Shown: positions 57 to 31,635 of the stretch, one piece after another
Numbering within the stretch: position 1 is the first letter of the stretch
How the letters are laid out: every line of letters begins with the position of its first letter
Source: Nereida ignava
GTDB taxonomy: Bacteria > Pseudomonadota > Alphaproteobacteria > Rhodobacterales > Rhodobacteraceae
Direction of reading: 5' to 3'
Assembly: GCF_001049735.1 (NCBI RefSeq)
Contig: NZ_CVPC01000006.1
Location: forward strand, 1 to 64,000
Length of the DNA: 64,000 nt
Translations under genes and position numbers: made by a program
The notes under the pieces: generated by a model
Seen by the model: the letters and a program-made list of their open reading frames with translations, nothing else
What the model was told of the DNA's origin: nothing
Databases searched by the model: none

Positions 57-173
57 GTTTGGTGATCATAGCGCAAGTGAAACACCCAGCCCCATCCCGA
101 ACCTGGCAGTTAAGCACTGTTGCGCCGATGGTACTGCGTCTTAAGGCGTGGGAGAGTAGGTCATCGCCAAACC
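57..173 (+). rRNA. rrf: 5S ribosomal RNA
   Basis: A full-length bacterial 5S rRNA of about 117 nt. The terminal helix is visible as GTTTGGTGAT at the 5' end pairing with ATCGCCAAAC at the 3' end. The internal stretches CCCATCCCGAAC and GGTACTGCG, followed by GGGAGAGTAGGTC, are the strongly conserved 5S core. It is the last rRNA of an operon whose 16S and 23S genes lie left of the window. The exact ends are uncertain by 1-3 nt. Confidence 0.94.
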
Positions 174-27455: not shown

Positions 27456-27510
27456 TGTGACTCTCTAGGTTATTCGAGACATGACTTAGACGAGTGTCAG
27501 GGGGATGCAA

Positions 27511-28398
27511 ATGGCTGATGAGGCAGATTACATTATCGCGCCAGATCCACTGGGTGCGCGCGGTGGTTTGCGCCTGACGCGTTCGGTTGCGGGGGTGGAT
27601 CATACTGGTGCTCAGATTGAGACGCCCGTGGTCGAAGAACGTCCTTTGACCATCTATTTGAACAGTCAGGAAATCGTCACGGCGATGACGATTGGTGACT
27701 TCCCTCAATACCTCGCGCTTGGGTTTTTGCGCAACCAAGGGATGCTTGATGATGCTTCTGACGTCACTGGCGTAGACTACGATGAAGAGCTTGAGACTGT
27801 GGTTGTGCGCACGGCCAATCAGACGGTGTTTGAGGATAAACTCAAGAAAAAGACACGCACCAGCGGCTGTGCTGTTGGGACAGTTTTTGGTGATATGATG
27901 GAGGGCCTTGAGGGCGTGACGTTGCCCCAAGTGCCTGTGAAAACGTCATGGCTTTACGCATTAGCGCATCAGATTAACACGACACCCAGCCTTTATCTGA
28001 CCTCAGGTGCTATTCACGGCACGGTGCTTTGCCAACAAGATCGTCCCCTCGTTTATATGGAGGACGTTGGTCGCCATAACGCAGTTGATAAAGTAGCTGG
28101 CTGGATGCTGTCAGAGGGTGTCAGCCCATCGGACAAGATTTTGTACACCACAGGCCGCCTTACATCGGAGATGGTGATCAAAACAGCGATGATGGGTATT
28201 CCGGCCTTGGTGTCACGTTCTGGCTTTACGGCATGGGGCGTCGAGATTGCCCAGCAAGTTGGTTTGACGTTGATTGGCCGGATGCGTGGGCAGCGGTTTG
28301 TCTGTTTGGCTGGAAATGACCGGTTGGTGCGCGATGCTGATCTTGCCTGCGTTCGCGACGAGCCATCGAAATCTGGCCGTAAGGGAGCGAAGCAATGA
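27511..28398 (+). CDS. fdhD: Formate dehydrogenase accessory sulfurtransferase
   Basis: FdhD passes sulfur from a cysteine desulfurase to the bis-MGD cofactor of formate dehydrogenase. From the ATG at 27511 the protein has 295 residues. The family features MEDVGRHNAVDK and TGRLTSEMVIK are present. The usual C-x-x-C of the mobile loop is reduced: TSGC120-A-V-G123 keeps the first Cys only. I prefer 27511 over 27505 because the AGGGG ribosome-binding site then has normal spacing. It begins the fdhD-mobA-mobB-moeA unit, each junction being a 4-bp overlap. Confidence 0.93.
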   Translation: MADEADYIIAPDPLGARGGLRLTRSVAGVDHTGAQIETPVVEERPLTIYLNSQEIVTAMTIGDFPQYLALGFLRNQGMLDDASDVTGVDYDEELETVVVRTANQTVFEDKLKKKTRTSGCAVGTVFGDMMEGLEGVTLPQVPVKTSWLYALAHQINTTPSLYLTSGAIHGTVLCQQDRPLVYMEDVGRHNAVDKVAGWMLSEGVSPSDKILYTTGRLTSEMVIKTAMMGIPALVSRSGFTAWGVEIAQQVGLTLIGRMRGQRFVCLAGNDRLVRDADLACVRDEPSKSGRKGAKQ

Positions 28399-28985
28399 AG
28401 CAACCCTTCGGTGTTATTCTGGCGGGTGGCCAAGCACGCCGGATGGGCGGCGGGGACAAGGCGCTTTTGCAGCTTGGCGGCACAACGTTGCTTGAGCTGG
28501 TGATTGAGCGTCTTGAACCGCAAGTGGCGGGGCTGTGCCTTAACGCCAATGGTGATTCTGCGCGGTTTGGCCAAATTGGTCATGACGTGGTTGCTGACAG
28601 TATCGGTGGGTTTGTTGGTCCTCTTGCGGGTGTTCTTGCGGGTCTTGATTGGGCGGCTGAGCAGGGTGCGGAAACGGTTGTAAGCGTTGCTGCGGACACG
28701 CCGTTTTTCCCATGTGATTTGACGCCCCGTTTGATGATGGCTGCTGATAATATGACCCACCCGCTGGCTTTGGCGGCAACGGATGGCCGTCATCCTACGT
28801 TTGGAATTTGGCCAGTCGCCTTGCGCGATGATCTGCGCGCGGCCTTGCAAGGGGGCCTGCGCAAAGTCGTCGCGTGGACCGATCAGCATCATGCGGCAGC
28901 CGCTTCGTTTGAAGTTGGCTCTTTTGATCCGTTCTTTAATATCAATACGCCTGAAGATTTGGCGCAGGCGGAGCGGTACTTATGA
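28395..28985 (+). CDS. mobA: Molybdenum cofactor guanylyltransferase
   Basis: MobA transfers GMP from GTP to Mo-molybdopterin to make the bis-MGD cofactor used by DMSO-reductase-family enzymes. The 196-residue protein begins with the nucleotidyltransferase signature ILAGGQARRMGGGDKALL, and the later VAADTPFFP carries the Mg-binding aspartate. It overlaps fdhD and mobB by 4 bp each, as expected for a cell that makes bis-MGD formate dehydrogenase. Confidence 0.95.
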   Translation: MKQPFGVILAGGQARRMGGGDKALLQLGGTTLLELVIERLEPQVAGLCLNANGDSARFGQIGHDVVADSIGGFVGPLAGVLAGLDWAAEQGAETVVSVAADTPFFPCDLTPRLMMAADNMTHPLALAATDGRHPTFGIWPVALRDDLRAALQGGLRKVVAWTDQHHAAAASFEVGSFDPFFNINTPEDLAQAERYL

Positions 28986-29476
28986 CGGAGCAAAAGGTTT
29001 TTGGTGTCATTGGCTGGAAAAACGCAGGAAAGACGGGCCTGATGGAGCGGCTTGTGGCTGAAATTACCGCGCGCGGTTTTTCAGTTAGCACGTTGAAGCA
29101 TGCGCATCATAATTTCGACATCGACCAGCAGGGCAAAGACAGCTACCGCCACCGCGATGCAGGCGCACAACAAGTGCTTTTGGCCAGTGCAAACCGGTGG
29201 GCGTTGATGACTGAATTGCGCGGAGAGGCTGAGCCACCGCTTGAGAAATTGCTGGCACAGCTGGCGCCCGTTGACTTGGTTTTGGTCGAAGGCTTCAAAC
29301 GGGACACGCACCCCAAAGTGTGTGCTTACCGGCAGCAAACATCCCAATCCATGATCGAGGACGCATCGGTATTAGCCTATGCCACTGACACAGTGCTTGA
29401 TACGCCAAAACCGCAATTTGATTTGGATGATACCGTCGCGATTACGGATTTCATCTGCGCAAAGGCGGGTCTGTGA
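28982..29476 (+). CDS. mobB: Molybdopterin-guanine dinucleotide biosynthesis protein B
   Basis: A 164-residue P-loop GTPase-like protein that assists MobA. The Walker A loop GWKNAGKTGLM is near the N-terminus, followed by TLKHAHHNFDID and SYRHRDAGA, all typical of MobB. The GFKRD segment after VLVE is also conserved. It overlaps mobA and the fused moeA gene by 4 bp at each end. Confidence 0.94.
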   Translation: MTEQKVFGVIGWKNAGKTGLMERLVAEITARGFSVSTLKHAHHNFDIDQQGKDSYRHRDAGAQQVLLASANRWALMTELRGEAEPPLEKLLAQLAPVDLVLVEGFKRDTHPKVCAYRQQTSQSMIEDASVLAYATDTVLDTPKPQFDLDDTVAITDFICAKAGL

Positions 29477-31635
29477 GCTTCGATCAGATCATCGCGGTCG
29501 ATTGGTCATCTTCCTCGACGCCATCTTCGGCCAAGCCCGTTGCGAACGCGATTTATGTTGGCTTAAAGGTGCGCGGGCAGCCAGTAGACATGCAGTATTT
29601 TCGAACGCGGCTGTCGGCGATGGATGCTATTTGCGCGATGCTTAATAGGGCGCAAGATGCTGGCTCGCGGGTTCTCGTCGGGTTCGATTTTGGTTTCGGC
29701 TACCCACAGGGTTTTGCACAGGCTCTGACGGGGCAATCTTCTGCGCTTGGCGTATGGGATTGGCTGGCCGAACGCATTGAAGATGGGCCGGACAACAAAA
29801 ATAATCGCTTTGAAGTGGCCGATCAGATCAACCGCGCTTTGGATAGTATCGGACCTTTTTGGGGGTGCCCGAGGGGTGCTGAAACCGATGCGTTGCGCCA
29901 ACGCGGGTCCGAGCGGGACCCCCGGCAGTTCCCTGAGCGCCGCACGGTCGAGGCATTGACCTCAAGCGCGCAACCAATGTGGAAGCTCTACACTCCGGGC
30001 TCTGTTGGTGGGCAGTCTCTTGTGGGGTTGCCGATGTTGGCCAAGCTGCGGGTGCGCTACGGCGGCGGCATTACAGTTTGGCCGTTTGAGACAGGTTTTG
30101 CAAAGCCCGCAACAAATATTGTACTGGCTGAAATTTACCCGTCATTGTTTGATGCAACGCTTCGCATGGGCGATGATGGAACGATATTTGATGTGCTCGA
30201 CGCGCGTCAGGTCCGCGCGGTTTGCGAGGCGTTTGAGAATGCTGAGTTGGACGCGCTTTTTGGCGCAGGTTTCGATCAGACGACGGACGCGAAAGCTGCG
30301 CAGATTGCCTCGGAAGAAGGGTGGATATTGGGTGTGCGAAAGCAAAAAACAGATGGCGACAGCTTGACGCCTCCGCCTCTTGGGAACGACTGTTTTGCGA
30401 TGCCGCAAGGCGTCAGTTGGACGCCCGTGGATCAGGCGCTGGATCAGTTGAAAAAGCGGGTTCGTGCCGTAACAGCTACAGAAACCATTGCGGTGAAAGA
30501 CGCGGTGGGGCGCTACCTTGCGAGTGATGTTTTCGCACAGCGCGCAAACCCACCACACGCTAATTGCGCGGTCGACGGGTATGGGTTTTCGGCAGATGCG
30601 ATCTTGGAAGGGCCCAACGAATTACCCGTTGTTATGGGGCGCGCCGCCGCTGGCGCGCCGTTTTCGGGTGCTGTTCCAAAAGGTCATGCAATCCGTATTT
30701 TGACGGGCGCGGTTGTCCCGATCGGTGTTGATACGGTTGTACTTGAAGAGGATTGCACTGTTGAGGCGGATGAGCAGGGGCAGCCCATTCGCATCGCTTT
30801 CCACGGAGGCCTACGCAAAGGCGCCAACACGCGCAAGGCTGGTGAAGATGTTATGAAAGGTGATGTGATGCTGCGCGCTTCGCGTAAAATCACCCCTGCG
30901 GATGCAGCGTTTCTGACGGCTGGTGGGATTAGTGATATTGACGTTCGCGCACCCCTTCGTGTTGCAGTTATTTCTACCGGTGATGAGTTGGTCGAGGCGG
31001 GCAGTACCGCCAGAGCGGGTCGAATTTTTGATGCAAATCGCCCCATGCTTTTGTCGATGATCACGGCTTGGGGGTTTGAACCTGTTGATATGGGGATCAT
31101 CCGCGATGATCCGGACGCATTGAAGGCAGCACTTGATGAAGCGGCTAAGTCTGCGGATGTGATCCTGACATCAGGTGGCGCATCCGCGGGTGATGAGGAC
31201 CACGTTTCAAAGCTGTTGCAAAGTTCAGGCTCGCTTGCGTGGTGGCGGATTGCGGTCAAACCCGGGCGGCCGCTGGCATTGGCGATGTGGGGCGGTGTGC
31301 CTGTGTTCGGCCTGCCTGGAAATCCCGTTGCAGCCTTTGTCTGCACAGCTATTTTTGCACGTCCCGCGATGATCTGTTTGGCTGGTGGGGATTTCGCAGC
31401 ACCGCAAGCAGTGACCGTACCCGCGGGTTTTTCAAAGCGTAAAAAAGAAGGCCGCCGCGAGTTTCTGCGGGCCCGTCTGCGTAACGGTGTTGCCGAGGTT
31501 TTTGCCTCAGAAGGGTCTGGCCGGATTGGTGGGCTGTCGTGGGCCGAAGGGCTGGTGGAGTTGCCAGACGAGGCGCAGGATATCACCCTTGGGACACCCG
31601 TTCTCTACATTCCGTTTTCAAGTCTTGGTCTGTAG
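29473..31635 (+). CDS. moeA: DUF429-like domain fused to molybdopterin molybdotransferase MoeA
   Basis: A 720-residue fusion. Residues from about 316 to 720 are a complete MoeA, which inserts molybdate into adenylated molybdopterin; PPHANCAVDGYGF, TGDELVEAG, TSGGASAGDEDHV and GLPGNPVAAF are visible. Residues 1-310 are a separate domain whose spaced acidic residues (IAVD10WS, VGFD72FGFGYP, LAE220IYPSLF, D272 in DAKAAQIA) follow the RNase H-fold pattern of DUF429 proteins. Normal MoeA is about 400 residues, so the extra part is a true addition and not a wrong start: codon use and frame are continuous, and the start overlaps mobB (ATGA). The role of the added domain is unknown; cofactor handling is a guess from context. 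Confidence 0.88.
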   Translation: MSFDQIIAVDWSSSSTPSSAKPVANAIYVGLKVRGQPVDMQYFRTRLSAMDAICAMLNRAQDAGSRVLVGFDFGFGYPQGFAQALTGQSSALGVWDWLAERIEDGPDNKNNRFEVADQINRALDSIGPFWGCPRGAETDALRQRGSERDPRQFPERRTVEALTSSAQPMWKLYTPGSVGGQSLVGLPMLAKLRVRYGGGITVWPFETGFAKPATNIVLAEIYPSLFDATLRMGDDGTIFDVLDARQVRAVCEAFENAELDALFGAGFDQTTDAKAAQIASEEGWILGVRKQKTDGDSLTPPPLGNDCFAMPQGVSWTPVDQALDQLKKRVRAVTATETIAVKDAVGRYLASDVFAQRANPPHANCAVDGYGFSADAILEGPNELPVVMGRAAAGAPFSGAVPKGHAIRILTGAVVPIGVDTVVLEEDCTVEADEQGQPIRIAFHGGLRKGANTRKAGEDVMKGDVMLRASRKITPADAAFLTAGGISDIDVRAPLRVAVISTGDELVEAGSTARAGRIFDANRPMLLSMITAWGFEPVDMGIIRDDPDALKAALDEAAKSADVILTSGGASAGDEDHVSKLLQSSGSLAWWRIAVKPGRPLALAMWGGVPVFGLPGNPVAAFVCTAIFARPAMICLAGGDFAAPQAVTVPAGFSKRKKEGRREFLRARLRNGVAEVFASEGSGRIGGLSWAEGLVELPDEAQDITLGTPVLYIPFSSLGL

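What the first reader, a model, noticed from the sequence alone, without database searches (positions are those of the whole stretch)
29473..31635. RNase H-fold (DUF429-like) domain fused to MoeA
MoeA is normally about 400 residues; here it follows about 310 residues that form a separate domain. The spacing of its acidic residues (D10, D72, E220, D272) matches the RNase H-like pattern of DUF429 proteins. The fusion sits in a tight fdhD-mobA-mobB-moeA operon, which suggests a link with molybdenum cofactor chemistry that I have not seen described.
Basis: partly seen in the sequence, partly recalled or inferred. Interest (0 to 1): 0.65.

Follow-up and report, generated by a model that had tools for sequence, protein, structure and literature searches.

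The report
Unknown enzyme domain fused to MoeA
An unstudied RNase H-shaped enzyme domain is joined to the molybdenum-inserting protein MoeA, and relatives of the same domain are joined to a vitamin B12 synthesis enzyme, so one unknown activity may serve two unrelated metal cofactors.

Summary
In detail: window 29473-31635 is one uninterrupted 720-codon ORF, with a ~290-residue domain (here 'X') before a complete MoeA, in an overlapping fdhD-mobA-mobB-(X-moeA) operon. X is catalogued only as the 'unknown domain' of NCBIfam PRK14495 (a MobB fusion) and has no Pfam family or solved relative. AlphaFold2 (pLDDT 91.9, pTM 0.91) gives RNase H strand/helix order; the best structural neighbours are RuvC/YqgF/Spt6/Cas9-type domains at modest Z (5-7). 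The tie to DUF429 is only transitive: no direct Pfam hit. New here: X is not a molybdenum specialist. It recurs fused to MoeA (32), MobB (7), MobA (1), the B12 enzyme CobH (14) and hydantoinase A (3); in a class-wide sample it lies in B12 loci in 14 of 42 cases. The fused MoeA is a second paralogue, as in 20 of 20 other fused genomes tested, probably serving formate dehydrogenase. Most likely X is a metal-dependent phosphoryl/nucleotidyl hydrolase acting on a nucleotide-bearing cofactor intermediate; its substrate is unknown.

The parts
29473..30342 (+). X domain, aa 1-290: RNase H-like fold, no Pfam family; invariant D10 (29500-29502), R46, D72 (29686-29688), R112, R157, Q181, E220 (30130-30132), D243 (30199-30201), Q246, E282 (30316-30318)
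30343..30378 (+). linker aa 291-302 between X and MoeA; lies in the low-confidence stretch 264-313 of the full-length model
30379..31632 (+). MoeA, aa 303-720 (MoeA_N, MoCF_biosynth, MoeA_C), one of two MoeA of this genome, 35.6% identical (379 aligned residues) to the stand-alone one
28982..29476 (+). mobB (PF03205), overlaps the fused gene by 4 bases
28395..28985 (+). mobA (MobA-like NTP transferase, PF12804)
27505..28398 (+). fdhD (PF02634), first gene of the operon

Best explanation
The ORF is a true two-domain protein. SHOWN by sequence or model: a complete MoeA paralogue carries at its N-terminus a ~290-residue domain X with RNase H strand order and a strictly invariant polar site (five acids, three Arg, two Gln); the gene order is fdhD-mobA-mobB-X-moeA; X is also fused to or beside MobB, MobA, CobH and HyuA, and beside CobU. 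INFERRED: (1) the fused MoeA is the metal insertase of the branch that makes bis-MGD for formate dehydrogenase, as MoeA1-MobB is in Methylorubrum extorquens, while the second, stand-alone MoeA beside moaC is the housekeeping one; (2) X is catalytically active and uses divalent metal held by D10/D72/E220/D243/E282, as RNase H-like enzymes do, to cleave or transfer a phosphate ester or anhydride; (3) its substrate is not bulk nucleic acid but a nucleotide-bearing intermediate or by-product common to late Moco and cobamide assembly, the best common candidate being products of the GTP-using guanylyltransferases MobA and CobU; (4) the fusion tethers this activity, by a flexible linker, to whichever enzyme makes or uses that intermediate. 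Steps 2-4 are untested.
For: Anatomy. Fold. Invariant site across Mo, B12, hydantoinase and other contexts: 128 of 128 for D10, R46, D72, R112, R157, Q181, E220, D243, Q246; 127 of 128 for E282 (the rows were chosen by a profile of 20 X domains at E 1e-15 or better). Fusions among 128 distinct domains: MoeA 32, CobH 14, MobB 7, HyuA 3, MobA 1. Context: 55 of 80 named loci Mo, 9 B12; 14 of 42 class-sample loci B12, in eight families. Genomes with strong X carry CbiC more often: 34 of 45 against 116 of 342, Fisher p 1.4e-7, not corrected for kinship. Guanylyltransferase link: in 10 of 10 genomes where X lies beside mobA with no mobB or moeA found at the locus, no MobB passes the cut-off anywhere in the genome, yet X stays with MobA; 3 class-sample loci place X directly after cobU, two of them in genomes without CbiC. 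Second MoeA: this genome and 20 of 20 other fused genomes. Formate dehydrogenase alpha present. Tether: full-length pTM 0.53 with pLDDT 34-46 at aa 261-310. MoeA1-MobB branch: PMC13197769, abstract and passages.
Against: No enzyme activity or ligand of any relative was found in the searches made. 23 of 42 class-sample loci have no Mo, B12 or hydantoinase gene within five ORFs, and 11 of 45 strong-X genomes lack CbiC. In three genomes (G012, G443, G444) an fdhD-mobB-moeA cluster, with too little room for X between mobB and moeA, stands elsewhere while X is alone at the old place, so X is not needed inside that operon. CobH itself uses no nucleotide (recalled), so the guanylyl theme does not explain the commonest B12 fusion. 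Foldseek finds no significant structural match, and Z under 8 can mean only a shared arrangement. In M. extorquens the moaC-adjacent copy is MoeA4, while the molybdenum branch depends on MoeA2, so the housekeeping role of the moaC-adjacent copy here is not settled. Several of the ten MobA-X genomes are metagenome bins of untold completeness.
Confidence: 0.4

Rival explanations
1. X is a docking or scaffold module, not an enzyme: it holds MobB, MobA and MoeA (or CobH and its neighbours) together and channels unstable intermediates.
For: Fused to five different partners, two on its N-terminal and three on its C-terminal side; sits between mobB and moeA, whose products interact directly in M. extorquens (PMC13197769); low-confidence linker.
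Against: Ten polar residues including five acids are invariant in 127-128 of 128 relatives, also where X stands alone away from mob or cob genes; a binding surface adapted to different partners would be expected to vary.
Confidence: 0.2
2. X is a genuine nuclease on RNA or DNA that adjusts expression of cofactor genes or has a housekeeping role, and its fusions are incidental co-regulation.
For: Best structural neighbours are mostly nucleases of the RuvC-like group; a 2014 survey predicts DUF429 proteins to be nucleases (PMC3985635); several members of the sister family X' lie just after what reads as rarA, a recombination gene (name recalled).
Against: Repeated in-frame fusion to small-molecule enzymes; no Rfam riboswitch in the window or in 12 Mo and B12 loci at gathering threshold.
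Confidence: 0.15
3. X hydrolyses a general by-product or damaged cofactor (metabolite repair) and is attached to several pathways for the same house-cleaning reason.
For: Wide set of contexts including hydantoinase A and, in one locus, what reads as a nucleoside transporter and deaminase set (L027, names recalled); some DUF429 proteins co-occur with NUDIX or RelA/SpoT domains (PMC3985635); X is retained where mobB and the second moeA are missing.
Against: Does not by itself explain why Mo and B12 are the two preferred partners.
Confidence: 0.2
4. The fusions are neutral products of gene overlap in tight operons and mean nothing.
For: mobB, X and moeA overlap or abut, so single frameshifts can fuse them; fused and unfused states alternate on the tree (25 architecture changes).
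Against: The same domain is fused in the unrelated cob context, on other branches of the tree, and context labels cluster far beyond shuffles (0 of 200 as low).
Confidence: 0.05

Closest known systems
NCBIfam NF011066 / PRK14495, MobB/unknown domain fusion protein
   Same: Its part after MobB (positions 166-443 of 452) is the X domain, 228 bits, E 1.9e-67.
   Different: There X is fused C-terminal to MobB; here it is fused N-terminal to MoeA, and the score is under the model's 596-bit cut-off because MobB is a separate gene.
DUF429 (PF04250; COG2410, COG4328, COG4923), RNase H-like clade D of Majorek et al. 2014
   Same: Strand-1 and strand-4 aspartates and an acid in the C-terminal helix region; linked by way of the X' family, which also shares the terminal EGW motif with X.
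   Different: None of 20 X domains hits DUF429 at E up to 1, no direct profile match; X is longer (about 290 aa against a 214-position model) with its own invariant W, R and Q residues.
RuvC/YqgF/Spt6/terminase RNase H-like domains
   Same: Core order and modest structural similarity, Z 5-7.
   Different: Mostly 5-15% identity; no nucleic-acid role indicated by context.
MoeA1-MobB tungsten branch of Methylorubrum extorquens (PMC13197769)
   Same: A MoeA paralogue beside mobB, separate from a moaC-adjacent copy, with fdhD and a formate dehydrogenase.
   Different: The abstract and passages seen mention no X-like domain; metal preference of the MoeA here is untested.

Membership tests
MoeA | MoeA_N, MoCF_biosynth and MoeA_C domains over Pfam cut-offs in order | tested here: met
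   120.6, 107.9 and 43.5 bits against 30.8, 26.6 and 22.1
MoeA | Molybdate or tungstate insertion activity | not testable with these tools
   needs complementation
RNase H-like superfamily | b1-b2-b3-aA-b4-(aB)-b5-aC core order | tested here: met
   E5-10 E27-33 E39-43 H46-62 E67-71 H178-199 E216-220 H242-255 in a pLDDT 91.9 model
RNase H-like superfamily | Acids at the ends of strands 1 and 4 and in the C-terminal helix | tested here: met
   D10, D72, D243 invariant in 128 of 128
RNase H-like superfamily | Significant match to a solved member | tested here: inconclusive
   Foldseek best E 0.22; VIA-align Z 7.0 to Spt6 and 6.4 to RuvC, below 8
RNase H-like superfamily | Two-metal phosphodiester chemistry | not testable with these tools
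   biochemistry needed
Pfam DUF429 (PF04250) | Score over the curated cut-off of 23 bits | tested here: not met
   no match in the own genome, in the window domain or in any of 20 X domains at E up to 1
Pfam DUF429 (PF04250) | Direct profile-profile similarity | tested here: not met
   hhalign probability 0.8% (X) and 0.4% (X') against ten classic members
DUF429-containing wider group | Homology through intermediate sequences | tested here: met
   X to X' E 4e-36; X plus X' to L165 E 1.5e-11 and L167 E 1.5e-5, both marked over the PF04250 cut-off (L167 with its neighbours in the frame); L166, also over it, only 0.0094, and the classic members nothing
PRK14495 equivalog | Full-length score over 596 bits (MobB plus X) | tested here: not met
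   228 bits, X part only
M. extorquens-type MoeA1-MobB branch | A moeA beside mobB and a further moeA elsewhere | tested here: met
   20 of 20 other fused genomes also have at least two MoeA_N matches
M. extorquens-type MoeA1-MobB branch | Tungsten selectivity | not tested
   the M. extorquens sequence was not fetched

The most novel reading that the evidence does not exclude
X founds an uncharacterised enzyme family of RNase H fold that acts on small-molecule nucleotide cofactor intermediates rather than nucleic acids, and does the same step for two unrelated metal cofactors, molybdopterin guanine dinucleotide and cobamides (for example on the GDP-activated species made by MobA and CobU, or on their by-products).
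Probability: 0.25. Interest if true: 0.85.

Novelty: new variant of a known kind. Interest (0 to 1): 0.6.

Why it matters
Moco and B12 synthesis are regarded as well mapped, yet here is a conserved, apparently catalytic domain repeatedly fused to enzymes of both. If it does the same reaction in each, it would be a missing or accessory step shared by two metal cofactors and a small-molecule function for an RNase H-like fold. It also gives relatives of the DUF429 group, predicted as nucleases in 2014 but without an assigned role that I could find, concrete partners and testable substrates.

Tried and rejected
DUF429 as a plain family assignment: rejected because Pfam, own-genome and direct hhalign tests fail; kept only as distant kin. 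Solved homologues by sequence: none credible for the domain or for profiles A1 and A3 (best hits E 0.14 or worse). Triple MobB-X-MoeA fusion, suspected from long open frames (L003/L041, L074, L077, L104): given up because the MobB hit is not in the frame of X (coordinates for L003; in-frame test for the others). Riboswitch link: no Rfam hit beyond a 5S rRNA and a tRNA in the window, none in 12 related loci. Idea that X needs MobB or the second MoeA: set aside because of genomes that keep X beside MobA without either. Absence of any one family from the VIA-align list is not taken as evidence. Papers searched: DUF429, mobB/moeA/RNase H, precorrin-8X methylmutase with RNase H-like or with gene fusion and molybdenum cofactor, mobA-mobB unknown domain, cobalamin/CobH/CbiX, 'unknown domain fusion protein', predicted nuclease/RNAse H fold/COG4328/cobalamin. 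I saw listings for all, and passages of PMC3985635, PMC13197769, PMC7689651 and PMC8123684; nothing seen there describes X. The library lacks most subscription papers. Two first neighbour surveys picked some wrong-strand ORFs; the scored version replaced them. It still has misses: MobB-X fusions number 8 of 80 and 7 by the filtered count (L090 lost), and L066 and L083 count as 'other' although tblastn finds mobA beside X in them.

Full report
What is there. The ORF at 29473-31635 is open over 720 codons from a GTG. Its last ~418 residues are a complete MoeA: three Pfam domains, all over cut-off. Its first ~290 residues, here called X, match no Pfam family but score 228 bits against the second half of NCBIfam PRK14495, 'MobB/unknown domain fusion protein'. 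The domain is therefore known to databases, only as unknown. fdhD, mobA, mobB and the fused gene overlap by 4 bases at each junction, so they are very probably one operon. This genome has one X.

The fusion is real. The closest relative (58% in X) has the same in-frame gene, and 32 of 128 distinct X domains are fused to MoeA. In other genomes X is a separate gene between mobB and moeA (L015, L018, L019), or fused to the end of MobB (8 of 80 named loci; 7 in the filtered count). A full-length AF2 model from 27 fused proteins gives pTM 0.53 with very low confidence across aa 264-313, against pTM 0.91 for X alone. This fits two folded parts on a flexible tether, but the full-length model is also less sure of parts of X itself (for example aa 151-170), so the tether is inferred, not shown.

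Fold. The X model (20 sequences, pLDDT 91.9) has the RNase H order of strands and helices, with D10 ending strand 1, D72 directly after strand 4, E220 ending the last strand and D243 at the start of the C-terminal helix. Foldseek finds nothing significant (best E 0.22). VIA-align ranks Spt6 first (Z 7.0, the YqgF-like part by recall), then RuvC (6.4), Cas9, Cas12, MOC1 and terminase nucleases. By recalled fold knowledge I count 38 of the 50 rows as RNase H/RuvC-like, 11 as actin-like kin and 1 as an eRF1-type factor. These Z values are below 8, so the consistency of the list, not any one match, is the evidence. Majorek et al. 2014 (PMC3985635, abstract and passages seen) put DUF429 in the same clade as RuvC, YqgF, Tex, Spt6 and terminases.

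DUF429. A direct link fails: no PF04250 hit in the own genome or in any of 20 X domains (four members at most have sub-threshold hits, to other families, E 0.12-0.23), and hhalign gives 0.8%. A sister family X' (21 members, from the weak hits) matches X over its length at E 4e-36. One X' member hits DUF429 at E 0.0047. A joint X plus X' profile finds two proteins marked over the PF04250 cut-off, L165 and L167, at E 1.5e-11 and 1.5e-5 among 206 ORFs; a third, L166, only at 0.0094; the classic members not at all. X is thus a distant cousin of DUF429, not a Pfam member.

The invariant site. Across 128 X domains, D10, R46, D72, R112, R157, Q181, E220, D243 and Q246 are identical in 128, and E282 in 127 with one gap. 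The rows were gathered with a 20-sequence X profile at E 1e-15 or better and at least 200 residues, so more distant kin are left out. The conservation spans molybdenum, B12, hydantoinase and other contexts. That argues for one retained chemistry rather than a mere scaffold.

Context is wider than molybdenum. Among the nearest 61 genomes, 24 have a match. In the 80 best named loci (of 575 relatives; query-biased, mostly Rhodobacterales by title, with two Nitrospinota-type bins), 55 have Mo genes within five ORFs, 9 B12 genes, 3 hydantoinase genes and 13 none of these. In an even sample of the class, 85 of 387 genomes match and 45 match strongly (E at most 1e-40), in 19 families. I classified 42 of those 45: 14 B12, 2 Mo, 3 hydantoinase (one of them on the other strand), 23 none of these. 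Dropped were the window's own genome and G173, both fused X-MoeA, and G406, whose X lies in two pieces. The two sets share some genomes (for example L080 and L220). The B12 loci come from eight families. Pfam confirmed representatives of CbiX, CbiC (CobH), CobQ, CobD/CbiB, CobO, CobU, CobS, CobT and hydantoinase A; the aminotransferase called CobC and the methyltransferase and CobL labels are recalled. X is fused to CobH in 14 of 128 rows and to hydantoinase A in 3. In a phylum sample, 40 of 397 genomes match strongly, all within the same class; outside it only two weak matches appear (E 1.9e-20 and 3.5e-4).

Tree. On a quick tree of 128 rows the context label needs 20 changes (shuffled mean 58.5, 0 of 200 as low). 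B12-linked X appear in two separate parts, and the Mo-linked ones lie in the part with the window. Support is SH-aLRT only, 46 of 125 inner branches are open, and the root is not inferred. Direction is therefore uncertain; the link between X and a pathway has changed more than once.

What X follows when the operon breaks up. In 10 of 10 genomes where X lies beside mobA with no mobB or moeA found at the locus, no MobB passes the cut-off anywhere in the genome; two have a sub-threshold match. Each of the ten has a single MoeA_N match and one fdhD match, in one genome each only a fragment. Several are metagenome bins of untold completeness. In G012, G443 and G444 fdhD, mobB and moeA stand close together elsewhere, with about 150-490 bases between the mobB and moeA matches, too few for X, while X remains alone at the old place. 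In the class sample X directly follows cobU in three loci, two of them in genomes without CbiC. MobA and CobU both transfer GMP from GTP (established knowledge), which suggests, no more, that X works near the guanylylated intermediates. Strong-X genomes carry CbiC in 34 of 45 cases against 116 of 342 others (p 1.4e-7, kinship not removed).

The MoeA half. This genome has a second, stand-alone MoeA (35.6% identical) beside what read as moaC and trpC (names recalled), and 20 of 20 other fused genomes tested have at least two MoeA_N matches. A formate dehydrogenase alpha subunit is present. In Methylorubrum extorquens a MoeA1-MobB pair dedicated to a tungsten formate dehydrogenase stands apart from the molybdenum branch, which depends on MoeA2; the moaC-adjacent MoeA4 there was dispensable for the tungsten enzyme (PMC13197769; abstract and passages). 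The operon here has the same logic; whether it prefers Mo or W is open.

Judgement. Anatomy about 0.95 certain, RNase H-like fold about 0.85, catalytic X about 0.7, small-molecule substrate shared by the Moco and B12 pathways about 0.25-0.3. Nothing seen in the paper searches listed under Tried and rejected describes X, its MoeA or CobH fusions, or a function.

Noticed in passing
L062, L086, L093, L094, L099, L119, L124 and others: The X domain is fused in frame to precorrin-8X methylmutase (CobH/CbiC) in B12 gene clusters, often after a CbiX-type chelatase gene.
   Followed up: partly
L076, L080, L255 (fused); L117 (separate, overlapping genes): X is fused to, or directly before, hydantoinase/oxoprolinase A, followed by what reads as its B subunit, in Alphaproteobacteria bins.
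   Followed up: partly
L199-L216: A sister family X', none of whose 21 aligned members is shown to pass a Pfam cut-off, in several cases directly after a gene whose shadow frame reads like the C-terminus of rarA (name recalled).
   Followed up: partly
L057/L025, L079, L105: X alone persists between the AzlC-like and downstream genes that flank the mob operon in other genomes, while fdhD, mobB and moeA stand together elsewhere without room for X between mobB and moeA.
   Followed up: yes
L088, L102: Two Nitrospinae/Nitrospinota-labelled metagenome bins hold an X 44-45% identical to the window's; transfer or mis-binning not decided.
   Followed up: no
L040/L010 (G010): The moeA part of the X-moeA gene, and fdhD beside it, appear split by frame changes in this assembly.
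   Followed up: no
window 58-172 and 505-578: A 5S rRNA and a tRNA gene at the start of the window, probably the end of a ribosomal RNA operon.
   Followed up: no
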